64,000 bases of DNA from the NCBI GenBank assembly GCA_000309945.1, contig CM001633.1:3917912-3981911 (forward strand), in the 5' to 3' direction. Shown piece after piece: positions 2,940 through 59,508 of this stretch. Position numbers and translations under genes: made by a program. The notes below the pieces were generated by a model, which was not told where the DNA came from, ran no database searches, and saw nothing but the letters and a program-made list of their open reading frames with translations. The stretch comes from Leptolyngbyaceae cyanobacterium JSC-12. GTDB lineage: Bacteria > Cyanobacteriota > Cyanobacteriia > Leptolyngbyales > Leptolyngbyaceae. Numbering within the stretch: the first letter of the stretch is position 1; each line of letters opens with the position of its first letter.

Positions 2940-3604
2940 ATTCGCTTTTGTATCACCGAGAAAACAGGAGGATTAAAATTTATGGGCACTGCACTCATTC
3001 TTATAGGAGGACGTAGCGCTGTTCCAGCGATATCTGGAGTACTTCAATTTCTGGATAATATCAGCAAAATCAAGTTTCTCACTTGTGAAGGAGAAGAATA
3101 TGAAGAACTTCAGAGAATCACCTCTAATTTTATACAAGACAAAAAAAAGGATGTAGATTTCTTGCCCGACCGGGATGTCAGGAAGGTTGATCCTTACAAC
3201 TTTGCCGAAGTCTTGAAAGCATTAACTGAACTGCTTTCCGGAGAGGACGATGTTTCCTTTGCCAGTCTAGCTTCAGCCCCGCAAACGATGTCTGTTGCTA
3301 GCTACGACTTCCTTCAGAAAAATTTTCCAAATGCAATTGTTTTTACTGTTAGCACTGACCGGGCAATCATTATTCCTCTCAAGGAAAATGAGTCTCCAAT
3401 ATCATTCACACATAAACTAACTGTAGAAGACTACATTCGAGCATATGGACATGAGATTTACAAAAGAAAAGCGGAAAACAGCTTTACTTTTCAGAACCAT
3501 CAACAACTAAAAGAGTTAGTTGATTACTTTGTTGAAAATATCGAAGTCGTTGACTCAATACTGTTGGAAATTCGACAACAAGCTGGCAAAGGTAGCGATT
3601 CAAA

Positions 3605-4958: not shown

Positions 4959-5277
4959 GGTAGTGCTAGATGCTTCAGCAATGCTGGCTTATCTTTTTGA
5001 TGAAGATGGAGCCGACTTCGTTGAAACAGCACTCAACGATCATGTCTGTGTGGGTGCTATAAACTGGGCTGAAGTTCTTTCAAAGGTTGAAGATAAAGGA
5101 CATTCGTTTAATGACTTAACCAGGACTCTGAGAGGATGTTTGAAAAGGGTGGAGAGGGAGCATGTCAGTTTTGCAAGTCTCTGCATTTGCCCTCATCCCC
5201 CAACCCCTTCTCCCAAACTTGGGAGAAGGGGAGTCGAAGCTTCAAGTCCCTCTCCCAAGCTTGGGAGAGGGATTTAG
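4951..5277 (+). pseudogene. VapC-like PIN toxin, truncated by a palindromic repeat
   Basis: The first ~60 residues (VVLDASAMLAYLFDEDGADFVE and INWAEVLSKVED) are a PIN-domain ribonuclease front with the first acidic residues of the active site. Homology ends around residue 55-65. From about 5189 the frame reads through a nested palindromic repeat, giving the artefactual tail CPHPPTPSPKLGRR, then stops. The second half of the PIN domain with the remaining acidic residues is missing, so no active toxin is expected. Confidence 0.8.
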
Positions 5278-5312: not shown

Positions 5313-5395
5313 AAGGCTAAAGCCATCACTACAAACCCCAAAAAACAGCCCCATTCATCCATATTTTTAGGTTTGTAGTGACGACTTTAGTCGTC
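5313..5395. repeat. Second inverted repeat, TCACTACAAACC arms
   Basis: A perfect 12-bp inverted repeat, TCACTACAAACC (5326-5337) and GGTTTGTAGTGA (5370-5381), is followed by the palindrome CGACTTTAGTCG (5382-5393). It looks like another non-autonomous interspersed repeat, nested in the wreckage downstream of the vapC fragment. Confidence 0.6.
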
Positions 5396-5463: not shown

Positions 5464-6084
5464 ATGTCATTCAGCAGTTATAAGAATCTTGGCGAAACTC
5501 TCAAAGAATTTCAAATCACCTATGCCGAAGACCACTTTATGGCTGAAGTTGCATTTGATATTTCTGACTACTTTCGTACTGATCTGACACTCATGATGAA
5601 AGATGGAATCGTGGATAACTCTGAATTGGTAATTTGCGAAAATTTAATCTATCCCGTATTGAAAGAAGTTTGGAAACAATATCGTCGCGATTTTCTTTTG
5701 TGGAGTCAGCAGTTCCTAAACTGTGATGCGAAACTGTCTGGATTTCCAGAATATATCCTGGCACGGCGATCGCCATTGGGCAAGGTAGTCTTTGATCAGC
5801 CCTACTTTTTACTGGTGGAAGCAAAGCAGGATAATTTTGATGCTGGATGGGGGCAGTGTTTGGCAGAAATGGTTGCCGCACAACGACTGAATGACCCCGC
5901 TCCAATCACAATTTTCGGAATCGTCTCAAATGGTGCAATCTGGCAGTTTGGCAAACTTGCAACAGTGCATTTTAGCAAACACCCTCAGCCCTATACCATC
6001 TATGAACTGGATAAACTCTTTGCCGCCGTCAACTACATCTTCCAACAATGTCAATTACAACTGAATACCTTGATAGCTGCTTAA
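5464..6084 (+). CDS. PD-(D/E)XK nuclease-like hypothetical protein, copy A
   Basis: 206 aa. The second half has LSGFPEYILARRSP followed by PYFLLVEAKQDNFDAGWGQCLAEMVAAQ, i.e. an ExK (EAK) after a hydrophobic strand, then a helix with a conserved GQCLAEM. This is the layout of restriction-endonuclease-fold proteins common in cyanobacteria. An AGGAG-type site precedes the ATG. It resembles the next gene in the EAK...GQCxAxMVAAQ block, so the two are paralogues or partners. Substrate unknown. Its place inside a type III locus makes an accessory or defence role possible but unproven. Confidence 0.7.
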   Translation: MSFSSYKNLGETLKEFQITYAEDHFMAEVAFDISDYFRTDLTLMMKDGIVDNSELVICENLIYPVLKEVWKQYRRDFLLWSQQFLNCDAKLSGFPEYILARRSPLGKVVFDQPYFLLVEAKQDNFDAGWGQCLAEMVAAQRLNDPAPITIFGIVSNGAIWQFGKLATVHFSKHPQPYTIYELDKLFAAVNYIFQQCQLQLNTLIAA

Positions 6085-6329: not shown

Positions 6330-6947
6330 ATGTCATACAGTGAATTTACCATTGCTAAGGTTCAGGAACTTTTTCATCTAGTGATCGATGAACAGAGGGA
6401 GCTTTTTTCAGATGTTCAGCCAGTCAAACCATCAGAATTATTACAGATGATTCTCAAGGAATATCTATCACTGGCAATTGATGTCAATAGCGAAAAAGTT
6501 CGTTCAGAATTCATCATTGCACCTGTTTTGGGTGATGTTCGCCGTCAAAGTAATTATCAAATCTCCCTATTTTCAGGCAAAGAATTTGACGTTGATCGAG
6601 AGCAGGGGCTGAGTGGTTACTGTGATTTCATTTTATGTTTATCTAAAGAGCAGCTTTATATTCAAGCACCTGTTGTGATGATTGTGGAAGCAAAGAATGA
6701 AAACATTGTCGGTGGTATGGGGCAGTGTATGGCCAGTATGGTTGCTGCTCAGGTATTTAACCAGCGGACAGGTAAACCTATCGATGAGATTTATGGAGCT
6801 GTCACAACCGGGACAAGCTGGAGATTTTTGAAATTAGTTGGTCAAACTCTCTGGGTTGATAGAAGTGAATACTACATCAGGGAAGTGGATAAGATTTTAG
6901 GTATTTTGATGCTACCTGCGAATCTTTTGTTGAAGCCAGTAGAGTAA
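6330..6947 (+). CDS. PD-(D/E)XK nuclease-like hypothetical protein, copy B
   Basis: 205 aa from the ATG at 6330. A GTG at 6321 overlaps the AGGAGG site and is not a likely start. It has LSGYCDFILCLS, then PVVMIVEAKNENIVGGMGQCMASMVAAQ, matching copy A in the acidic-ExK core and the GQCxAxM helix, but it diverges elsewhere. There is an additional upstream acidic stretch, FDVDREQGLSGYCDF. The pair reads as two related restriction-fold proteins placed between the two halves of the type III-D operon. Function unknown. Confidence 0.7.
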   Translation: MSYSEFTIAKVQELFHLVIDEQRELFSDVQPVKPSELLQMILKEYLSLAIDVNSEKVRSEFIIAPVLGDVRRQSNYQISLFSGKEFDVDREQGLSGYCDFILCLSKEQLYIQAPVVMIVEAKNENIVGGMGQCMASMVAAQVFNQRTGKPIDEIYGAVTTGTSWRFLKLVGQTLWVDRSEYYIREVDKILGILMLPANLLLKPVE

Positions 6948-20067: not shown

Positions 20068-21523
20068 CACGACTTGGCAAGTTACCCAGAAAGGAAAAAG
20101 ATAAGCAGAAAATGTAGGAGACGTTAGCCGTAGCCGTATCATGCTGCCCTTTGTCGCTGTGCCATCGACGATTGCTCAAGAGTTTGGGAAATATCGAGAC
20201 CTGTTCTGCCGAGGCGCAGGCTTTGAGCAGGTGAGTCGCTATGTGACCGGATTGCTGTTGAGTGAGAACAAAACCTTGCAAGGGATTGCCGGACAATGGG
20301 TAGCAGGTGGGGAGGTCGGCGGACGAAGAGCGATGCACGCAGCGGTGTTTGAGGCGGGCTGGAGGAGTTCAGAGTTAATGTCCCATCATCGTGCTGTGAT
20401 AGCCAAAGAGCATCAGGGGCGAGGGCGAGAAGTCATCAGTCTGGATTGGACGCTCAGCCATCACGATTGGGGCAAGCAGATCTTTGGGGTGAAGCGATCC
20501 TATGATTATGTGGAACATCGGATGAGTTGCTTTCAAACGGTGGTGACGGCGACGATTGCGAACCGCCACCTAATTGATGGGATTGACGTGGTGGTGCAGT
20601 TTCCAGATTTTTCAGTGGCAGAACGGGAGTATCTGAAGGTGACGGCAAAATCCCACTATGACGATTTAGACCAAGTGCGAGAACGACTGATTGAGATGTT
20701 GCATTATCACAAGAATCGATTGGAGTATCGCAAACGCACCGAGATTGCCGTCGAGATTGTGCGCCAAGTGGAAGCGGAAGGACAATTTCCCACCGCCGAT
20801 TATGCGTTTGACAATGGGGTGTTGACTGTTGAGTTAACCACCATGATTGAGTCCGCAGGAAAACACTGGGTGAGTGAAGTTGAAAGTTCTCGCAACATCT
20901 TGTGGAATGACCAATGGCAACGGGTAGATGCGATTGGTTTAGAACTCAGAATCCATCACCCAGAGAGCTTTCGCCCGATTCAAGTCACTTGCCGCAACGG
21001 CGAAACGAAACCGATTTGGGCATTTACCAAAGTCGTGCGCCTCAAGAAGTTTGGACGCAAGCGATTGGTCATCGTCCACGAGCAAGCAGATTTACAAGAC
21101 CCACCTCGCTTCCTGCTCACCGATGCGTTGCATTGGGAAAGTGGGCGAGTCATGCAGACTTGGAGTTATCGATGGTCCTGCGAGGTCTTTCATGAGGTGA
21201 GCAAACAGCACACCGGGCTAGAGTCGGCTCAGGTGCGGAACGAGGAAGCGGTCAACCGTCACTTCCGTCTTAGTTGCGTGGCGCAGTCGATTCTGCAACG
21301 GACTGCCTGTTCTGGCGCACAATCTGAACGATTTGAGTTTGCTCAAGGCAAGCAAACGGTGGGACAGAAGCTCTATACCCTCACTCGTCAAGCCTTTGAT
21401 GATTTGCTGCAATTCATTGTGACGCGATGTTCTCACGGACATACAAATGAACAGATTTTACAAGCTCTCCTCCCCAGTTGATTGGCGATCGTTTTTTCTA
21501 CTTCGGTAACTTGCCAAGTTGTG
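20068..21523 (+). mobile_element. IS4/IS701-like insertion sequence, copy 2 (1456 bp)
   Basis: Inverted-repeat ends CACGACTTGGCAAGTTACC and (reversed) CACAACTTGGCAAGTTACC. Unlike copies 1 and 3, the 6 bases on the two sides differ (TTCAAT on the left, TGTCGT on the right), so there is no target duplication. This is the mark of recombination between two copies or an adjacent deletion. The element itself is full length and matches copy 3 in length. Confidence 0.92.
20141..21481 (+). CDS. DDE transposase, IS4/IS701-like (copy 2)
   Basis: 446 aa, same protein as copies 1 and 3. It starts 73 bases inside the left end. All three candidate acidic residues (SLDWT, AFDNG, SCEVF) are present. It is read away from the Uma2 gene and towards the primase gene's 3' end. 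Confidence 0.92.
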   Translation: MLPFVAVPSTIAQEFGKYRDLFCRGAGFEQVSRYVTGLLLSENKTLQGIAGQWVAGGEVGGRRAMHAAVFEAGWRSSELMSHHRAVIAKEHQGRGREVISLDWTLSHHDWGKQIFGVKRSYDYVEHRMSCFQTVVTATIANRHLIDGIDVVVQFPDFSVAEREYLKVTAKSHYDDLDQVRERLIEMLHYHKNRLEYRKRTEIAVEIVRQVEAEGQFPTADYAFDNGVLTVELTTMIESAGKHWVSEVESSRNILWNDQWQRVDAIGLELRIHHPESFRPIQVTCRNGETKPIWAFTKVVRLKKFGRKRLVIVHEQADLQDPPRFLLTDALHWESGRVMQTWSYRWSCEVFHEVSKQHTGLESAQVRNEEAVNRHFRLSCVAQSILQRTACSGAQSERFEFAQGKQTVGQKLYTLTRQAFDDLLQFIVTRCSHGHTNEQILQALLPS

Positions 21524-23599
21524 TGTCGTAGTGTCGGTGTCGAAATTCTCCCCTACCGACACCGTAAACACGTCCTTTATATTAACCGTGTAGCTTACAG
21601 TGTAGGGATGTAATAGTTGCTGGATAAGGGATAGAGGGGTATCGACACTTGAAGCACGGTAATAACTGCAAAAAACTTAGATTTTTGTCCAGACCTTCCT
21701 ACGTTTGCCATCGATGATCCGTGCATTGTTGAGTGGTTTCCATCCCAACGCATACAGAATCGTTTTGACTCGATTCTGTGAAACCTTGTCATGCTTGGAT
21801 TCTTCCAGCTTGAACAGGTTCTCCAGAATTTCGGCAATGGCAACTTGATTCTTAAATTCAACAAACTCTTCAATGGCATCTGCCCACGAATCAGAGATTT
21901 GGTACTGTTCACGCTCTTGCTCTACCCGTGCTTCTTGCTCCTGGTCAAGCCACCATTTTTCACCGGCTCGGTAGAGTGTGACGGCGGCTGCCCAAATGCG
22001 ATCGCGTTGTTGCTGTAACATCACCCGATCAATCGGTTGAATGACTGGCAGCACCCAAAACCGACGATTTCCGGTCATGTCTGCCAGAAATTCTTGCTGG
22101 TTGGTGGTACCGACAATCACTGATGCTCGTTTCATTGCCTCAACGGAGCGCCCATAGGGAGGACGAACATGATCGATGGGGCAAGTGATGAATGCTTTCA
22201 CCTGGTTGATGTCTTTGCGTCCAAACACAGTTTCTAGCTCTGCCCATTCGATAATCCAGGCACGATGTAGTTTTAACCGTTCATCTTTGTCGGAAACGGA
22301 ACCAAGGGAGTCATCAAACCATTGCTCACCCGCGAGAATGCGGAAAAATGTGGACTTGCCGTACCCCTGTTTGCCTTGCAGGATGAGGGCACAGTCCAAT
22401 TTGCATCCGGGTTCATAAGCCCGTGCTACCGCTCCCACCAAAAACTTTTTGAGCAGTACTTGATGCAATTCTTCAGAGGTTCCCAAGTAGCGCAGTGCTA
22501 ACCCATTCAGGATGCTGGTGTCGTTGCCATAGCGCTTGTGAACCTGGTTCAGGTATTCCACCACGGGACTGTAAGCATTCTGCTTTGCTAGCTTCATCAC
22601 AATGTCTGACACATCTTCCCTAGATGAGCGGATGGATAGGCGATGAGTGACGATGAGTTCCAATTTGGCGGATGTCGGGTCAAACTCTGCCCCATCCAGT
22701 TCGATTTGCTTAAACAAAGTGTTGAACCGCAATCGTTCCAAGAATCGAGCTTCAATCAGCCGATAGTCCCTTAGCAGTTTTGGGATTTCCTCTGGAGTGT
22801 CGCCTGGGCGCTCCGGTTCCGATTTTGGTGCGAGACGTGTACTGATCGCGGCTAAAACATCTGCTGCTGACAGTGAGTAATCCTGAATCCAGTCGGCAAT
22901 ATCAACCCCACCAGCAGGGGGTAACTTGCTCCACAGTGGGCTATCAGGATAGGCATATAGCCATTGGGCATCAGGGAAATCTTGAGCAATGTCCTCAGCG
23001 TGTTTGATTCCTGGTTCATCGCGGTCTGGGCAGATGACGATGGATGCACCATTCAAGTTTTGTACGTAATTCTCATAGCCGTACTTGCGCCACTTGCCAG
23101 CACCCCCTAATGAGCAGGTTGCAGCAATGCCCATCGACATGAGCAGGTCTACTTTTCCCTCTCCTTCAACGATGAGAATGGGTTGATTGTCTGCGATCGC
23201 CCGTTGGTTCAGTGGGTCAAAGATGCGGTAGAGATGAATGCGGTCATACACCGACTCCGGTAAGCCTTTTTCCCATCGGTTGCTACGCTTGTTTTCCTGC
23301 CAAAATTGGCGTTTCCCTTTGCCGTCATCCACCCGACGAACTCGCACCACTTCGCGCCCATTGGCATCGTGATAGATAAACTCTTGATTCTGAGCAGGTT
23401 TGAGTGGTTTCTCGGTTCGCTCCAACTGCTTGACATAAATCGCGGCGCTATCAGCACCATGCAATCCAGAATCACAGTATTTCCCTGTGAAGTGGTAGCC
23501 GTTGACGGCGGATGGTGCTGATTCTTTAGCGTAGGTGTGGCAAAGGACGCGGTTTTCGTCTAAAGTCCACGAGCAATCGCGGTCTTTGGTGCGTCCACA

Positions 23600-25055
23600 C
23601 ACGACTTGGCAAGTTACCCAGAAAGGAAAAAGATAAGCAGAAAATGTAGGAGACGTTAGCCGTAGCCGTATCATGCTGCCCTTTGTCGCTGTGCCATCGA
23701 CGATTGCTCAAGAGTTTGGGAAATATCGAGACCTGTTCTGCCGAGGCGCAGGCTTTGAGCAGGTGAGTCGCTATGTGACCGGATTGCTGTTGAGTGAGAA
23801 CAAAACCTTGCAAGGGATTGCCGGACAATGGGTAGCAGGTGGGGAGGTCGGCGGACGAAGAGCGATGCACGCAGCGGTGTTTGAGGCGGGCTGGAGGAGT
23901 TCAGAGTTAATGTCCCATCATCGTGCTGTGATAGCCAAAGAGCATCAGGGGCGAGGGCGAGAAGTCATCAGTCTGGATTGGACGCTCAGCCATCACGATT
24001 GGGGCAAGCAGATCTTTGGGGTGAAGCGATCCTATGATTATGTGGAACATCGGATGAGTTGCTTTCAAACGGTGGTGACGGCGACGATTGCGAACCGCCA
24101 CCTAATTGATGGGATTGACGTGGTGGTGCAGTTTCCAGATTTTTCAGTGGCAGAACGGGAGTATCTGAAGGTGACGGCAAAATCCCACTATGACGATTTA
24201 GACCAAGTGCGAGAACGACTGATTGAGATGTTGCATTATCACAAGAATCGATTGGAGTATCGCAAACGCACCGAGATTGCCGTCGAGATTGTGCGCCAAG
24301 TGGAAGCGGAAGGACAATTTCCCACCGCCGATTATGCGTTTGACAATGGGGTGTTGACTGTTGAGTTAACCACCATGATTGAGTCCGCAGGAAAACACTG
24401 GGTGAGTGAAGTTGAAAGTTCTCGCAACATCTTGTGGAATGACCAATGGCAACGGGTAGATGCGATTGGTTTAGAACTCAGAATCCATCACCCAGAGAGC
24501 TTTCGCCCGATTCAAGTCACTTGCCGCAACGGCGAAACGAAACCGATTTGGGCATTTACCAAAGTCGTGCGCCTCAAGAAGTTTGGACGCAAGCGATTGG
24601 TCATCGTCCACGAGCAAGCAGATTTACAAGACCCACCTCGCTTCCTGCTCACCGATGCGTTGCATTGGGAAAGTGGGCGAGTCATGCAGACTTGGAGTTA
24701 TCGATGGTCCTGCGAGGTCTTTCATGAGGTGAGCAAACAGCACACCGGGCTAGAGTCGGCTCAGGTGCGGAACGAGGAAGCGGTCAACCGTCACTTCCGT
24801 CTTAGTTGCGTGGCGCAGTCGATTCTGCAACGGACTGCCTGTTCTGGCGCACAATCTGAACGATTTGAGTTTGCTCAAGGCAAGCAAACGGTGGGACAGA
24901 AGCTCTATACCCTCACTCGTCAAGCCTTTGATGATTTGCTGCAATTCATTGTGACGCGATGTTCTCACGGACATACAAATGAACAGATTTTACAAGCTCT
25001 CCTCCCCAGTTGATTGGCGATCGTTTTTTCTACTTCGGTAACTTGCCAAGTTGTG
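23600..25055 (+). mobile_element. IS4/IS701-like insertion sequence, copy 3 (1456 bp)
   Basis: Clean insertion. The 6-bp target duplication TCCACA is at 23594-23599 and 25056-25061, and the ends are CACGACTTGGCAAGTTACC and (reversed) CACAACTTGGCAAGTTACC. It is antisense to the primase gene it interrupts. This copy defines the element's true ends and length, against which copies 1 (36 bp longer) and 2 (no duplication) can be judged. Confidence 0.95.
23673..25013 (+). CDS. DDE transposase, IS4/IS701-like (copy 3)
   Basis: 446 aa, identical in translation to the transposases of copies 1 and 2, with SLDWT, AFDNG and SCEVF blocks intact. It is expressed, if at all, from within the IS, as the host primase gene is read on the other strand. 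Confidence 0.92.
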   Translation: MLPFVAVPSTIAQEFGKYRDLFCRGAGFEQVSRYVTGLLLSENKTLQGIAGQWVAGGEVGGRRAMHAAVFEAGWRSSELMSHHRAVIAKEHQGRGREVISLDWTLSHHDWGKQIFGVKRSYDYVEHRMSCFQTVVTATIANRHLIDGIDVVVQFPDFSVAEREYLKVTAKSHYDDLDQVRERLIEMLHYHKNRLEYRKRTEIAVEIVRQVEAEGQFPTADYAFDNGVLTVELTTMIESAGKHWVSEVESSRNILWNDQWQRVDAIGLELRIHHPESFRPIQVTCRNGETKPIWAFTKVVRLKKFGRKRLVIVHEQADLQDPPRFLLTDALHWESGRVMQTWSYRWSCEVFHEVSKQHTGLESAQVRNEEAVNRHFRLSCVAQSILQRTACSGAQSERFEFAQGKQTVGQKLYTLTRQAFDDLLQFIVTRCSHGHTNEQILQALLPS

Positions 25056-25129
25056 TCCACAGACTGGACATGGTTGTTGCTTGCTGGAATGGTTAAACTG
25101 AGAGTGCCGAAGAGGCTTATTTAGGGTAG

Positions 25130-25164
25130 AGCGATCGCCGTTCATGAGATGGCGATCGCTCTTG
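25130..25164. repeat. HIP1-based perfect inverted repeat in the primase 5' end
   Basis: AGAGCGATCGCC (25130-25141) and GGCGATCGCTCT (25153-25164) form a 12-bp perfect inverted repeat around an 11-base spacer, built from two GCGATCGC octamers. On the plus strand it is followed by CTTGTTTTTGG, like a weak terminator. On the minus strand it lies within the first codons of the primase gene and overlaps an alternative ATG at 25145, so it could influence its translation. Confidence 0.6.
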
Positions 25165-25184
25165 TTTTTGGTAGGTTGCATGAT

Positions 25185-25433
25185 TTATTTCCCCACAGAA
25201 GCGAGTCTTTTAGCTTTCATGAATTGCTGGCAGTAGAGTTCATGAGCTTTTGGGTCATCCTGATTTCTGAACAAATCCTGGATCGATTCCTGGATGTACC
25301 GTGTGTTGCGAGAGTTGAACCGCACGAAATGAATGCCTTCAATCAGCTTTCCAGCACGTCTCCACTGGCTAAGGGTATAGGGTGAAATGCCGAGAAGTTT
25401 TGCAGCTTCCTGCTTAGTGATTGGAGTTGCCAT
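25185..25433 (-). CDS. Helix-turn-helix DNA-binding protein (excisionase/MerR-like)
   Basis: 82 aa. ITKQEAAKLLGISPYTLSQWRRAGKLIEGIHFVRFNSRNTRYIQESIQDLF is a winged helix-turn-helix of the excisionase/MerR type. Its stop lies 3 bases before the primase start, so the two genes are one unit. In integrative elements such a protein serves as excision factor or replication/transcription regulator. The short length and position next to the primase favour this. Confidence 0.8.
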   Translation of the reverse strand: MATPITKQEAAKLLGISPYTLSQWRRAGKLIEGIHFVRFNSRNTRYIQESIQDLFRNQDDPKAHELYCQQFMKAKRLASVGK

Positions 25434-25739
25434 AATCCTTAAACGCAGCAGTGCCCAAATGCACGGCTAAGGCATCTGGGCACTGCTGCATGGGGGATTA
25501 AATTTAGGACACCTTAGCAAGGTTTATGACCCTACGTAGTACGGTTCCATCCCCACCGCTAAGGTGCTCTTTCCCGCTTTACCCCTTCCTTGCTAACCAC
25601 ACCTGGGAACATCTTTGTAGGGAGACATTCTTACGTGGTGCTGACTATCACAACAAGTTCAGGTTCGGGAGCCGACAAACTATTGGGAACCTGAAACTTT
25701 ATCCCATGATGCCGATCAGTGTACTTCAGATGTCAGCAC
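25434..25739 (-). ncRNA. Candidate structured non-coding RNA or origin region
   Basis: About 300 bases between two minus-strand genes with an exceptional density of perfect inverted repeats. They are 13 bp at 25445-25457/25477-25489 (extended by 4 bp after a mismatch), 9 bp at 25510-25518/25558-25566, 9 bp at 25514-25522/25588-25596, 9 bp at 25658-25666/25687-25695, and 8 bp at 25638-25645/25732-25739. The two 9-bp pairings that share 25514-25518 exclude each other. The 25658-25695 stem is nested inside the 25638-25739 stem. The outer stem includes the stop codon of the upstream gene. Strand, and RNA versus DNA function, are not established. Confidence 0.5.
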
Positions 25740-26278
25740 GTTGAAGATATTTGTGGCTTTTTCTCGCTTTCATCTGGTTGCTTGACTATAAACACTTCTG
25801 CACAAGCGTTCAGGTTGTACTGGTAGTAGGTTGCTTTCGACCCAAAGTTCAACGCTCGCCAGTGGATGTTTTGTTTCAACGTTCCCCGGAGCCGCAAGGT
25901 GTGCAGGAACTCAGTGGAGATATCGAACTCTTCTGCAACCGCATGAGCGTTCATCCATTTTCCTCGCGTGTAGTCGTACATTTTGGGTTCGTATTCGGCT
26001 CCAACCATCCAGGTCAATACTTCTAGTTGCTCCTGGGTGATCGTGTCCTTGTTTCTGGCTGCTTGAAGCAAATCCATCATCAAATCTCCGACATAGCAGG
26101 ATTCAACGGTTTTTTGAGCATCTTCTAGCGAGTCGCATTCAACTGTGAGCAGTTGCCCATCGTCGGGGTTGAGAATGCGGTAAACGCCCTCTACAGGGAC
26201 GATGAGATAGCGCAGGTAGGCGACAGAGTTCTTGAAGTCGAAGCGATAGTAAGGCTGTAGCTCGTTACTTGTATTCAT
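25733..26278 (-). CDS. Hypothetical protein of the integrative element, 181 aa
   Basis: 181 aa, not a family I recognise. The N-terminal half is mixed alpha/beta (YYRFDFKNSVAYLRYLIVPVEGVYRIL). The C-terminal part reads like a helix-turn-helix (NAHAVAEEFDISTEFLHTLRLRGTLKQNIHWRAL), similar in style to the 82-aa HTH protein downstream. It may be the first gene of the minus-strand replication operon, transcribed from the divergent control region 26279-26397. A regulatory DNA-binding role is possible. Confidence 0.65.
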   Translation of the reverse strand: MNTSNELQPYYRFDFKNSVAYLRYLIVPVEGVYRILNPDDGQLLTVECDSLEDAQKTVESCYVGDLMMDLLQAARNKDTITQEQLEVLTWMVGAEYEPKMYDYTRGKWMNAHAVAEEFDISTEFLHTLRLRGTLKQNIHWRALNFGSKATYYQYNLNACAEVFIVKQPDESEKKPQISSTC

Positions 26279-26308
26279 AGCAGTAACTCAATTACCAACA
26301 ATCTATAG

Positions 26309-26354
26309 AGTAGTAATAAATTAGATATAAATCAATATCATATTTATTACTACT
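26309..26354. promoter_or_regulatory. Divergent control region with 13-bp inverted repeat operator
   Basis: AGTAGTAATAAAT (26309-26321) and ATTTATTACTACT (26342-26354) form a 13-bp perfect inverted repeat between the divergently read 181-aa gene and the ribbon-helix-helix gene. Further TAGTAAT (26364-26370) and CAATTAC (26290-26296) half-sites flank it. The spacer is AT-rich. This fits an operator bound by the adjacent ribbon-helix-helix protein, controlling both operons like a phage-type switch. Binding is inferred. Confidence 0.65.
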
Positions 26355-26397
26355 GCGATATTCTAGTAATTGTTCACTAATATGGAGCAATCAACGT

Positions 26398-26610
26398 ATG
26401 ACAGTGGCAAAGGTGAGTAAACGAATCCTGGTTACGATACCCGACTCAGTTCATGATGAATTGGCAGCATGGGCAGAATATCAAGGTAGACCAACGGCAA
26501 ATCTTGCGGCTTACCTGATTGAGTTAGGTATCAGGGATGCAAAGAGCAAGGGTGAATTCAAGACTCTTCCTCCCGCGGTTCAAAGCCAAGAAGGTGGTAG
26601 TAATGACTAA
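26398..26610 (+). CDS. Ribbon-helix-helix (CopG-like) regulator
   Basis: 70 aa. VSKRILVTIPDSVHDELAAWAEYQGRPTANLAAYLIELGIRDA has the beta strand followed by two helices of CopG/Arc-type repressors. It lies immediately beside a 13-bp inverted repeat, its probable operator. It is the first gene of the plus-strand operon of the element, and its stop overlaps the next ATG by 8 bases. Probably autoregulates and balances the two divergent operons. Confidence 0.8.
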   Translation: MTVAKVSKRILVTIPDSVHDELAAWAEYQGRPTANLAAYLIELGIRDAKSKGEFKTLPPAVQSQEGGSND

Positions 26611-26836
26611 CCCCAGGTACGACGAGAGCCGGGATGAAACCCGACACGCGGCTGTAAGTGAAGAAGATTGTGAAGAAATGGCAGACACTTACGAGTGGGA
26701 CTTAAAACGGGTAGAACAAAGTAATACAGATGTCCTTCCAGTTGATTGTGTGTTTGATGGCTACTGCGAGTTTCCGCCTTCTCGCATGGATCTAACGCAA
26801 GGCGACTATTTCACGGAGAAAAAGGAAGATGCGTAA
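26603..26836 (+). CDS. Small acidic hypothetical protein
   Basis: 77 aa from the ATG at 26603, which overlaps the end of the ribbon-helix-helix gene. A longer frame from 26537 has no better start. It is rich in Asp and Glu (YDESRDETRHAAVSEEDCEEMADTYEWDL). No domain recognised. It overlaps the next gene by 8 bases, so all three form one translationally coupled operon. Confidence 0.6.
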   Translation: MTNPRYDESRDETRHAAVSEEDCEEMADTYEWDLKRVEQSNTDVLPVDCVFDGYCEFPPSRMDLTQGDYFTEKKEDA

Positions 26837-27344
26837 ACTGATTCTGTTCAAGGCAGACAAAGGTGAAATTCAGAAGTATCGCAGCGAAACCGCTACAACC
26901 GTTGGTGAGTCGTTTTACCGGGTTGCAAATGCGGGGTCAGTTCCCTCGCTCATCGATACGATCGCTGAACATTATTGCTCCAGCAACAAACCTGCCCCTG
27001 AACCTGGGTATCGATTAACTGAAACTGTGCCAGATGACCAAGAATCCTTTCGGGATAGCGGCTGGGAAGTGGTGCGAGTGGACGAATACACCCCAGACAT
27101 TCCGCCTCCACATGGCTCAGAGTTTGGCTCAATCTACATTTGCTACTGTGCCTACAAGCCCGTAGCGCCAGAAGAGGCTTGGACGAAAAAGGCTCATCGC
27201 ATTGCACCTTCCCTAGATTCCTTTGGTGGCGACAAAGCTGCTTATGAAAAGTGGCTCGAATCTCAGCCCATTGCTATGCAAGAAGAATCCAAAGCGGTTA
27301 CTAATTGGATGGAGACGCAAGTAAAGCAACACGCTGAAGTCTAG
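26829..27344 (+). CDS. Hypothetical protein, 171 aa
   Basis: 171 aa, no family recognised. Begins MRKLILFKADKGEIQKYRSETATT. The middle is proline-rich with an aromatic stretch (GSEFGSIYICYCAYKPVAPEEAW), and the end is helical. No membrane or secretion signal. It is the last gene of the element's plus-strand operon and is followed by a strong terminator at 27382. Confidence 0.65.
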   Translation: MRKLILFKADKGEIQKYRSETATTVGESFYRVANAGSVPSLIDTIAEHYCSSNKPAPEPGYRLTETVPDDQESFRDSGWEVVRVDEYTPDIPPPHGSEFGSIYICYCAYKPVAPEEAWTKKAHRIAPSLDSFGGDKAAYEKWLESQPIAMQEESKAVTNWMETQVKQHAEV

Positions 27345-27381
27345 TTACTGTAAAAAGAATTCAAACTCTTATGTTTGTAAG

Positions 27382-27415
27382 CTCCCTAGAAAACCACTCT
27401 AGGGAGTCTTTTTTT
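27382..27415 (+). terminator. Rho-independent terminator of the element operon
   Basis: A 9-bp perfect stem, CTCCCTAGA and TCTAGGGAG, with the loop AAACCAC, is followed by TCTTTTTTT. It lies 37 bases after the stop of the 171-aa gene. Confidence 0.9.
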
Positions 27416-27493
27416 GATCTAAGTTATGATCTAAGGCTTTGAGATGGAAACTTGAAACTGCTTCACAGTAAGGTTTTCAGGCTTCTGAACAAT

Positions 27494-27538
27494 TGATTTG
27501 TAATCAGCCGGTCGCAAGTTCGAGTCTTGTCACCAGCT
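27494..27538 (+). other. 3' fragment of tRNA-Thr(UGU), integration site (att)
   Basis: TGATTTGTAATCAGCC holds the anticodon arm with anticodon TGT. Then come a variable loop, the T-arm GCAAG-TTCGAGT-CTTGT, and the acceptor strand CACCAGC. The 5' half of the tRNA is missing: upstream bases do not form the D-arm or acceptor partner. This is the usual trace left at one end of an element that integrated into the 3' end of a tRNA gene, and the element lies to its left. Confidence 0.8.
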
Positions 27539-27546
27539 TTGGTAGA

Positions 27547-27577
27547 AAAAGCTCGGATCCAAAGAATCCGAGCTTTT
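27547..27577. terminator. Bidirectional terminator between tRNA-Thr fragment and ndhD1
   Basis: A 12-bp perfect stem AAAAGCTCGGAT / ATCCGAGCTTTT with an A-rich 5' side and T-rich 3' side. It can end transcription from the tRNA (plus) and from ndhD1 (minus, which stops at 27617). Confidence 0.8.
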
Positions 27578-36505: not shown

Positions 36506-36895
36506 TCACGGGAGCGAAAATAACTGCACCTTGTCGTACTGATAAAGGACAATCGCTGCAAGCGGCTCAAGCTGTTTTGCCAACTCTACATTAGTTTCAG
36601 GAGAGGCATCTGAAACAGGTACCCCAGTATCAACTTCTCCACCAACGCCACCCAGACAAAGGGGACGATCTTGAGGAATATCTTGAGGTTGACAATAGAT
36701 GGCATAGTCGGTTGCGATCGCGCTACCCAGACCACTTGCTAACGTATGACGGGAAACCTCAGTGGGAAGGAACCCAGGAACAGGTTTAGAACGAATGATT
36801 TCCACGGCTGATCCGGCGATCGCCTGCGAGGTAAACCCACTCAAAATCGTTGCGATCGCTGTCAACCCAACTGTAACTGCCAATGCTCGCACCAT
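36506..36895 (-). CDS. Secreted hypothetical protein, 129 aa
   Basis: 129 aa with a clear signal peptide (MVRALAVTVGLTAIATILSGFTSQAIAG). The mature part contains a pair of cysteines (YAIYCQPQDIPQDRPLCLGG) that could form a disulphide, and ends in VLYQYDKVQLFSLP. Exported to the periplasm or outside. No family recognised. Confidence 0.7.
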   Translation of the reverse strand: MVRALAVTVGLTAIATILSGFTSQAIAGSAVEIIRSKPVPGFLPTEVSRHTLASGLGSAIATDYAIYCQPQDIPQDRPLCLGGVGGEVDTGVPVSDASPETNVELAKQLEPLAAIVLYQYDKVQLFSLP

Positions 36896-59259: not shown

Positions 59260-59417
59260 CGAAGTGGGTAATAGAAATCAAGATGCTATCGTAGCGCGAT
59301 CGCGGGCTACTCAACACAAGTAATGTAAAACACAAATAATTTAAGAGGGCTTTCCACGCAACCAGTGAAAAGCCCTTCTCAACAAAATCTAGATCCTAAA
59401 GAAACCAGATCCAGAAC

Positions 59418-59508
59418 GGAGAGAGAGGGATTCGAACCCTCGGTACGGCCTTTCGATCCGTACAACAGATTAGCAATCTGCCGCTTTCGACCACTCAGCC
59501 ATCTCTCC
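59418..59508 (-). tRNA. tRNA-Ser(GCU)
   Basis: 91 bases on the minus strand. Acceptor stem GGAGAGA pairs with TCTCTCC. It has a type-II long variable arm, anticodon loop CAGATT-GCT-AATCTG (anticodon GCT, codons AGC/AGU) and the T-loop GGTTCGAATCC. The sequence ends without an encoded CCA. It lies 49 bases from mraY on the same strand. Confidence 0.97.

What the first reader, a model, noticed from the sequence alone, without database searches (positions are those of the whole stretch)
25434..25739. Three-hundred-base region of nested and competing perfect stems inside the element
Five perfect inverted repeats of 8-13 bp fill the gap between the 181-aa gene and the HTH-primase operon. Two 9-bp pairings share 25514-25518 and cannot form together, which is riboswitch- or pseudoknot-like. 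The 25658-25695 stem nests in the 25638-25739 stem, and the latter covers the upstream stop codon. The region could be a structured RNA (leader of the HTH-primase genes) or a replication origin. I cannot match it to a known RNA family.
Basis: partly seen in the sequence, partly recalled or inferred. Interest (0 to 1): 0.75.

Follow-up and report, generated by a model that had tools for sequence, protein, structure and literature searches.

The report
Conserved hairpin ahead of element's primase
Of five mirror-image repeats in a gap of a small mobile DNA element in a cyanobacterium, only one long hairpin stands out as both stable and fully preserved in the only close relative found; the switch-like pairings around it are not preserved, so this looks like an ordinary control region rather than a new RNA switch.

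Summary
The five perfect inverted repeats are present as stated. One matters: the 25445-25489 hairpin (18 pairs on the - strand, one G.U; 9-nt loop), ending 11 nt before the HTH start codon. It supplies nearly all the folding excess (- strand z -5.25, + strand -3.69; without it -1.19 and -0.62).

One close homologue was found: a 6.9-kb contig of a same-genus MAG with an intact 6.5-kb element in tRNA-Thr. There the hairpin lies in a 69-nt identical run, the longest in the 1.2 kb compared, while fourfold sites differ by 15%. Three of the other four stems lose pairs; double changes are no more than in shuffles.

So the switch and nested-stem reading is not supported. An origin here is less likely, since a GTGTCG repeat cluster lies beside the primase's 3' end, though 4 of 19 other primase loci also have an unusual hairpin ahead of the gene. 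I favour a leader or intercistronic RNA hairpin controlling the HTH-primase operon (0.38). In this genome the element is probably dead: an IS interrupts the primase, and tRNA-Thr, integrase and attL lie 620 kb away.

The parts
25445..25489 (-). Hairpin: 18 pairs (13 perfect, then one G.U, then 4) and a 9-nt loop; ends 11 nt before the HTH start codon
   Evidence: z -6.43; homologue -7.42; no difference in 45 nt
25424..25492 (.). 69-nt run identical to the homologue (hairpin, linker with AAGGA, first codons of the HTH gene), the longest identical run in the 1.2 kb compared
25510..25566 (.). 9-bp inverted repeat CACCTTAGC/GCTAAGGTG; 2 of 9 pairs broken in the homologue
25514..25596 (.). 9-bp inverted repeat TTAGCAAGG/CCTTGCTAA competing with the previous one; in the homologue 3 of 9 pairs broken, 2 changed on one side, 1 on both
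25638..25739 (.). 8-bp inverted repeat whose right arm covers the 181-aa stop codon; in the homologue 2 of 8 pairs broken, 1 changed on both sides
25658..25695 (.). 9-bp inverted repeat, kept in the homologue (one end pair changed on one side, still a U-G pair on the - strand)
25608..25732 (.). More conserved non-coding block (9 differences in 125 columns, 1 gap column); no folding excess in the window (z 0.27 and -0.30 for 25606-25735)
25490..25607 (.). Variable middle block (29 differences in 115 columns, 5 gap columns)
25185..25433 (-). 82-aa HTH_17 / excisionase-like protein, first gene of the HTH-primase operon
   Evidence: PF12728, 1.4e-07; phrog_66, 2e-07
25733..26278 (-). 181-aa protein, no family matched, same direction, upstream of the region
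21677..23599 (-). Primase-helicase gene (VapE-like domain), main part after the IS insertion
25052..25181 (-). N-terminal part of the primase gene, cut off by the IS
23600..25056 (+). IS copy interrupting the primase gene; transposase best matches NCBIfam IS701 models, below their cut-offs
20068..21524 (+). Identical IS copy at the broken left edge of the element half
21523..21648 (.). GTGTCG/CGACAC repeats by the primase 3' end (5 copies here, the first overlapping the IS edge; 6 in the homologue's cluster): candidate origin
27494..27552 (+). tRNA-Thr 3' fragment: right attachment site

Best explanation
The region is the non-coding control gap of a small tRNA-Thr-integrated element. Its one clearly preserved structure is the 25445-25489 hairpin, which acts as RNA: the - strand transcript forms an 18-bp stem just ahead of the HTH start codon, in the leader or in the intercistronic part of a message read through from the 181-aa gene, and sets the stability, processing or translation of the HTH-primase message. 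Shown: the hairpin, its position, its conservation and its predicted stability. Inferred: that it is transcribed and acts as RNA, and how it acts. The other four repeats are mostly accidental or not under pairing constraint. In this genome the device is probably a relic, because the primase gene is interrupted and the element is split.
For: The hairpin alone carries the folding signal (- strand z -5.25 with it, -1.19 without; alone with short flanks -6.43, homologue -7.42). No difference in a 69-nt run against 69 differences at 468 fourfold sites. On the - strand (HTH-sense) the odd pair is G.U, so the stem is continuous; on the + strand it is an A.C mismatch. It lies 11 nt from the start codon, and the genes on both sides run the same way; a scan of 25300-26500 found no promoter-like or terminator-like site on either strand, which fits read-through but is weak (that scan expects only about 2 of each by chance and covers sigma-70 type only). 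In the genome only its own two arms match an 18-nt arm pattern with fewer than 2 mismatches.
Against: Only two sequences exist and the hairpin does not vary, so no covariation shows pairing as RNA. The simplest mode of action, masking of the AAGGA ribosome-binding sequence, is no better than with shuffled upstream DNA (91 of 200 and 47 of 200 shuffles mask it at least as well). No T-run follows the stem on either strand (read), so it is not a standard terminator. Among relatives of the HTH none of 29 other places has a like hairpin within 450 bp (best score 13 against 15). The G.U argument rests on one pair. The window holds two other inverted repeats of equal score at 5.2-5.4 kb. Hairpins ahead of other primase genes fit a replication role as well. 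No expression data.
Confidence: 0.38

Rival explanations
1. The hairpin is a DNA replication signal: on single-stranded DNA it is recognised or used by the element's own primase-helicase, as a single-strand initiation hairpin or part of the origin.
For: It stands ahead of a primase-helicase operon. Known analogues: RSF1010 ssiA, a 40-nt site with a hairpin bound by RepB' (PMC4434180, passages), and the pRN1 stem-loop needed for replication beside a repressor plus primase operon (PMC4234260, abstract and section 14). Plasmids as small as 3.1 kb (Microcystis, 34% identity over 45% of the query) carry a VapE relative. Of 20 primase loci scanned, 5 have within 600 bp ahead of the gene a hairpin that at most 1 of 200 shuffles reaches: the homologue (score 15), L111 (14), L114 (12), L103 and L105 (11 each).
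Against: A cluster of 6 GTGTCG/CGACAC copies within 203 bp lies by the primase 3' end in the homologue and is kept in part in the window, a better origin candidate. pRN1's stem-loop is downstream of its primase gene. In one search, 15 of 20 loci have no such hairpin, no shared sequence was noticed among the others, and shuffles do not allow for ordinary terminators between genes.
Confidence: 0.28
2. The palindrome is a double-stranded operator bound by the 82-aa HTH protein or the 181-aa protein, giving feedback control of the operon.
For: It sits just ahead of the HTH gene. HTH_17/excisionase-like proteins bind DNA, often near their own genes (general knowledge). The letters, not only the pairing, are conserved.
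Against: 18-bp arms with a 9-bp spacer are long for an operator (general knowledge). With up to 3 mismatches the arm matches only two other places in the homologue's contig, both inside genes: 3583-3595 (primase, 1 mismatch) and 6067-6079 (171-aa gene, 3 mismatches); 17 of 200 shuffles reach 4 matches in all. Relatives of the HTH lack a like palindrome.
Confidence: 0.19
3. A switch or antitermination leader in which competing stems decide expression of the operon (riboswitch-like, or like the CI RNA leader of satellite P4, which is recalled and comes from no call).
For: Complementary CCTTAGC/GCTAAGG segments recur: 4 of the 7 copies in the 64-kb window start at 25368-25558. The upstream GCTAAGG and the hairpin loop with its neighbouring stem base (CCTTAGC on the - strand) could pair, and both are unchanged in the homologue (letters; the pair list printed there was one position off, the pairing is read by eye).
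Against: Two of the four copies are lost in the homologue (L040 keeps 4469 and 4513); both competing stems lose pairs; no clear folding excess without the hairpin; no Rfam match at gathering.
Confidence: 0.07
4. The hairpin has no function and is conserved by chance or by recent exchange between the two elements.
For: Only two sequences; identical runs of 40-64 nt also occur in the coding parts.
Against: The next block (115 columns) differs by 25% and the HTH gene by 14.5%; by arithmetic from the 14.7% fourfold rate, a 69-nt identical run at a given place has a probability of about 2 in 100,000, not corrected for choice of place.
Confidence: 0.08

Closest known systems
pRN1 replicon: repressor (orf56) plus replication protein (orf904) operon with essential stem-loop (PMC4234260; abstract and section 14 read)
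   Same: Small DNA-binding protein gene followed by a primase-type replication gene; a strong stem-loop in a non-coding part
   Different: pRN1's stem-loop (100 nt) is downstream of the replication gene, variable in sequence but conserved in structure; here 45 nt, upstream of the operon and identical in sequence
RSF1010 single-strand initiation sites ssiA/ssiB (PMC4434180; passages)
   Same: A hairpin-bearing site of similar size in an element with its own primase
   Different: RSF1010 has one site on each strand and the RepB' archaeo-eukaryotic-type primase; here one hairpin, and a primase-like protein with a VapE-like domain
tRNA-integrated satellites and islands with primase-helicase genes (PICI and P4 types; recalled, plus the listing)
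   Same: Tyrosine integrase at a tRNA 3' end, excisionase-like HTH, primase-helicase with VapE-like domain, direct-repeat attachment sites
   Different: 6.5 kb only; no packaging or helper-hijacking gene recognised among the proteins scanned

Membership tests
Known RNA family (Rfam 15, including riboswitches) | Score at or above the family's gathering score | tested here: not met
   in 64 kb only a tRNA and a hit on its other strand, both at about 59.4 kb. (25300-25850): five hits, E 0.31-3.5, 14.9-19.7 bits against gathering scores of 54-100
Conserved structured RNA spanning the whole region | Stems kept, with compensatory changes, in homologues | tested here: not met
   three of five stems lose pairs; double changes no more than in shuffles. 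Two sequences only
Conserved structured RNA spanning the whole region | More stable than shuffled sequence beyond the one hairpin | tested here: not met
   Met only through the hairpin; without it z -1.19 (28 of 200 shuffles as good) and -0.62 (57 of 200)
Intrinsic terminator | GC-rich stem followed by a T-run | tested here: not met
   Letters: GTTTAAGG follows the stem on the - strand and ATGGGGGA on the + strand. One search found no terminator-like site, but it allows loops of 3-8 only and so might not have reported this 9-nt loop
Iteron-type replication origin in this region | Several copies of a short repeat, kept in homologues | tested here: not met
   GCTAAGG/CCTTAGC: 4 copies at 25368-25564 (one inside the HTH gene), 2 kept in the homologue; top 6-mer count in the region 3 in the window, 2 in the homologue
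pRN1-type stem-loop origin | Stem-loop downstream of the replication gene and needed for replication | tested here: not met
   The hairpin is upstream of the operon; need for replication not testable with these tools
RSF1010-type ssi site | Hairpin bound by the element's primase on single-stranded DNA | not testable with these tools
   Binding needs an assay; in the homologue's contig, loops up to 25, no second inverted repeat scored above 11
tRNA-targeted integrative element with its own primase | Tyrosine integrase next to a tRNA 3' end and direct repeats at both ends | tested here: met
   G002 contig: 47-nt direct repeat read at L040 8-54 and 6498-6544, integrase. Window genome: tRNA-Thr plus integrase at C1:3.32 Mb, right repeat at 27494-27552
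PICI or P4-type phage satellite | Helper-dependent packaging or capsid-remodelling genes | tested here: inconclusive
   No such function among the element proteins scanned with Pfam, PHROGs and NCBIfam, apart from a weak PHROG terminase-small-subunit match of the HTH protein's helix-turn-helix (2.3e-4); the 181-, 99- and 171-aa proteins match no family

The most novel reading that the evidence does not exclude
The hairpin is a single-strand initiation or cis-regulatory signal of VapE-type primase-helicase elements of cyanobacteria (a hairpin ahead of the primase gene recurs, with different letters, in some other loci), with the primase-downstream GTGTCG cluster as the matching origin, giving a compact, testable cyanobacterial replicon of about 6.5 kb.
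Probability: 0.17. Interest if true: 0.5.

Novelty: new member of a known kind. Interest (0 to 1): 0.25.

Why it matters
It narrows a five-stem puzzle to one hairpin with a clear test, and removes a weak riboswitch candidate. The intact relative is a 6.5-kb tRNA-Thr element with integrase, primase-helicase, a candidate origin and a candidate control hairpin: a small system for studying how such elements replicate in cyanobacteria. The window's copy shows how insertion sequences can break such an element and leave its halves 620 kb apart.

Tried and rejected
Riboswitch or competing-stem switch: rejected as leading reading because the stems are not kept in the homologue and the region without the hairpin does not fold clearly better than shuffles. 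Masking of the ribosome-binding sequence: its GG is mostly paired in predicted folds (less so for one G with 300 nt upstream), but shuffled upstream sequence does as well, so not claimed. Small coding gene in the block 25608-25732: a one-base indel separates the homologues, not pursued. Dispersed repeat: not supported. The one viral-contig hit to the arm pattern shows no second arm in the 401 bases read. Homology of the 82-aa protein and the 181-aa C-terminus: suggested by eye, BLASTP gives E 0.51, not claimed. More homologues of the region: none in 386 genomes of the phylum beyond the window's own (queried with the G002 version; the other listed matches are 18-57 bases long, best E 7e-4, list cut by the tool), none in plasmids or phages. 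The 181-aa protein over most of its length: only the two genomes among 388 of the class; five others match a part. Viral-contig scans with the primase and the 181-aa protein found no relative. Four loci with the best relatives of the 171-aa protein outside the two elements (from three genomes) show no HTH, primase or 181-aa match and no exact hairpin arm.

On rereading I mended one claim: I had meant to say that other primase loci lack a hairpin ahead of the gene; one search shows that 4 of 19 others have one that at most 1 of 200 shuffles reaches. I moved the odds slightly for that (best explanation 0.40 to 0.38, replication 0.25 to 0.28, operator 0.20 to 0.19, novel case 0.15 to 0.17).

Full report
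Observation. One of them, 25445-25457/25477-25489, extends inward to 18 pairs with a 9-nt loop if one G.U is allowed on the - strand. For a fixed 306-bp stretch the count is above chance (5 against a mean of 0.305; none of 600 shuffles reaches it), and also without the hairpin (4 against 0.232; none of 600). Across the window one of 255 tiles of 250 bp has 4 such repeats, by its coordinates this one, so the stretch is the extreme of a set and was chosen for being so. The two competing stems share an arm and come from a repeated CCTTAGC/GCTAAGG motif: 7 copies in 64 kb, 4 of them starting between 25368 and 25558. By the simple score two other places in the window (5209-5268, 5317-5390) equal the hairpin's 15.

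Folding. The - strand of 25434-25739 folds at z -5.25 and the + strand at -3.69, none of 100 shuffles as good. Leaving out the hairpin, 25495-25739 gives -1.19 (28 of 200 shuffles as good) and -0.62 (57 of 200). The hairpin with short flanks gives -6.43, and its homologue -7.42. The block 25606-25735 gives 0.27 and -0.30; an overlapping but not exactly matching 130-base stretch of the homologue gives -1.75 (12 of 200) and -0.38. So the structural signal is the hairpin.

Relatives. The region occurs once in the window's own genome. Among 58 genomes searched with 25185-26300, three match: the own genome, G002 (same genus, 88% over 1,067 bases of the query), and G015, over about 100 bases inside the HTH gene. 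G002's 6,910-base contig is, by length and 100% protein match, a contig of the MAG Leptolyngbyaceae cyanobacterium C42_A2020_001. It carries a 47-nt direct repeat of a tRNA-Thr 3' end at 8-54 and 6498-6544 (read) around an integrase, a primase-helicase with VapE-like domain, the HTH gene, this region, the 181-aa homologue, a ribbon-helix-helix gene and the 99- and 171-aa homologues. It is a contig of a metagenome bin, so its assembly is unverified.

Conservation. Between window and G002 the hairpin has 0 differences in 45 nt and lies in a 69-nt identical run (25424-25492), the longest of 12 runs of 25 or more in the 1.2 kb compared; the middle block 25490-25607 has 29 differences in 115 columns plus 5 gap columns, and 25608-25732 has 9 in 125 plus 1 gap column. 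Fourfold sites in five gene comparisons differ at 69 of 468, unevenly (from 1 of 28 in the 99-aa gene to 8 of 28 in the HTH gene). Of the other stems, 25658/25687 is kept (one end pair changed on one side, still U-G on the - strand); 25510/25558 loses 2 of 9 pairs; 25514/25588 loses 3 of 9, with 2 changed on one side and 1 on both; 25638/25732 loses 2 of 8, with 1 changed on both sides. Double changes are no more frequent than when partners are shuffled (238 of 500 and 262 of 500 shuffles reach the observed). With two sequences this control is weak. The hairpin never varies, so it offers no covariation for or against.

Other elements. One search was given 48 loci; 32 returned an HTH match, at 30 distinct places, one of them the homologue. 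Of the other 29, the best inverted repeat within 450 bp upstream scores 13 (L039, 103-153 bases ahead), the rest 12 or less, against 15 for the hairpin; one locus has only 130 bases upstream (L022), and one has an insertion sequence 38 bases ahead (L012). Ahead of three (L019, L028, L030; the last seen by eye) a stem followed by T-rich sequence stands, which looks like an ordinary terminator. Ahead of the primase gene itself, 20 loci were scanned over 600 bp (after): the homologue has the hairpin (15; 0 of 200 shuffles), and four others have an inverted repeat that at most 1 of 200 shuffles reaches: L111 (Nostoc plasmid, 14, 66-134 bases ahead), L114 (Microcystis plasmid, 12, 32-66), L103 (11, 99-131) and L105 (11, 221-248). 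The remaining 15 do not. Shuffles do not account for terminators between genes, and some primase starts were taken mechanically, so this is a lead, not a result. The region itself was sought in plasmids, phages and 386 genomes of the phylum without a further homologue.

Origin. In the homologue GTGTCG/CGACAC occurs 6 times in 1908-2110, just beyond the primase 3' end, and twice elsewhere in 6.9 kb; a 12-bp perfect inverted repeat (2018-2068) stands with it. The window keeps 5 copies in 21523-21648, the first overlapping the IS edge, and two lie at the displaced half (L123 8701 and 8778). Of 564 half-overlapping 250-bp tiles of window plus contig, two reach 6 copies of one 6-mer: this cluster, and a GATCGC tile at 36626-36875 (GATCGC as part of a common cyanobacterial repeat is recalled). 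This is a better origin candidate than the region in question, by analogy with pRN1, whose essential stem-loop is downstream of its replication gene (PMC4234260, abstract and section 14). It remains a candidate: no replication test was possible.

State of the element here. The primase gene is interrupted by an IS copy (23600-25056) identical to one at 20068-21524 and to a third at C1:3.32 Mb; the transposase matches IS701 models below their cut-offs. The third copy abuts the rest of the element: 376 bases at 93% and 1,361 bases at 89% to the left part of the G002 element, including integrase and tRNA-Thr. The two halves lie 620 kb apart on opposite strands, as an inversion between IS copies would leave them (inference). 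The element in the window's genome is therefore probably not functional.

Mechanism. I favour an RNA hairpin in the leader or the spacer of a 181-aa/HTH/primase message (0.38). For: direction, place, the G.U that closes the stem only on the sense strand, and no promoter-like or terminator-like site in the scan of 25300-26500 (in the homologue, no promoter-like site and two terminator-like sites, neither at the hairpin). Against: no transcript data, no covariation, and the simplest mode of action, masking the ribosome-binding sequence, is not above the shuffled control. A replication hairpin (0.28) and an operator palindrome (0.19) stay open.

Literature. Four searches listed 12 of 41, 10 of 13, 8 of 43 and 2 of 2 papers; none of the listed titles is about this element or hairpin. 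Only PMC4234260 (abstract, section 14) and PMC4434180 (passages) were read. P4 and PICI comparisons are otherwise recalled.

Noticed in passing
window 20068-27552 and L123 7243-10501: One tRNA-Thr element split into two halves 620 kb apart on opposite strands, with identical IS copies at both break edges and a third inside the primase gene; fits an IS-mediated inversion.
   Followed up: yes
L040 1908-2110; window 21523-21648: Cluster of GTGTCG/CGACAC repeats with a 12-bp inverted repeat beyond the primase 3' end: candidate replication origin, with an IS copy of the window inserted in it.
   Followed up: partly
L103, L105, L111, L114 (600 bp ahead of the primase ORF): Inverted repeats ahead of other VapE-type genes that at most 1 of 200 shuffles reaches (4 of 19 other loci); could be terminators or a shared replication feature.
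   Followed up: partly
window 26309-26354: AT-rich palindrome (13 perfect pairs, score 14 over 20-nt arms) between the divergent 181-aa and ribbon-helix-helix genes; in the homologue this stretch (L040 5256-5602, spacer and ribbon-helix-helix gene) has no DNA match to the window, as if repressor and operator were exchanged together.
   Followed up: partly
window 26591-27344; L142, L143, L144, L145: The 99- and 171-aa genes travel as a pair: relatives lie side by side in 4 of 4 fetched loci (the best matches), and relatives of the 171-aa protein are in 40 of 388 genomes of the class, the two element-bearing genomes included; no family matched. In L144 the pair lies near an integrase and a tRNA-Pro.
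   Followed up: partly
window 23121-23133; L040 3583-3595: The primase gene holds a one-mismatch copy of the hairpin arm; the leader's 5' arm could pair with the primase message over 13 bp with one G.U (read by eye). Possibly chance: near copies of the arm are over-represented in the genome (67 against 18 for the reversed pattern).
   Followed up: no
window 59417-59473: Rfam reports the family Plastid-psbl-rps4 just above its gathering score on the strand opposite a tRNA-Ser gene: probably the antisense of the tRNA, not a separate feature.
   Followed up: no
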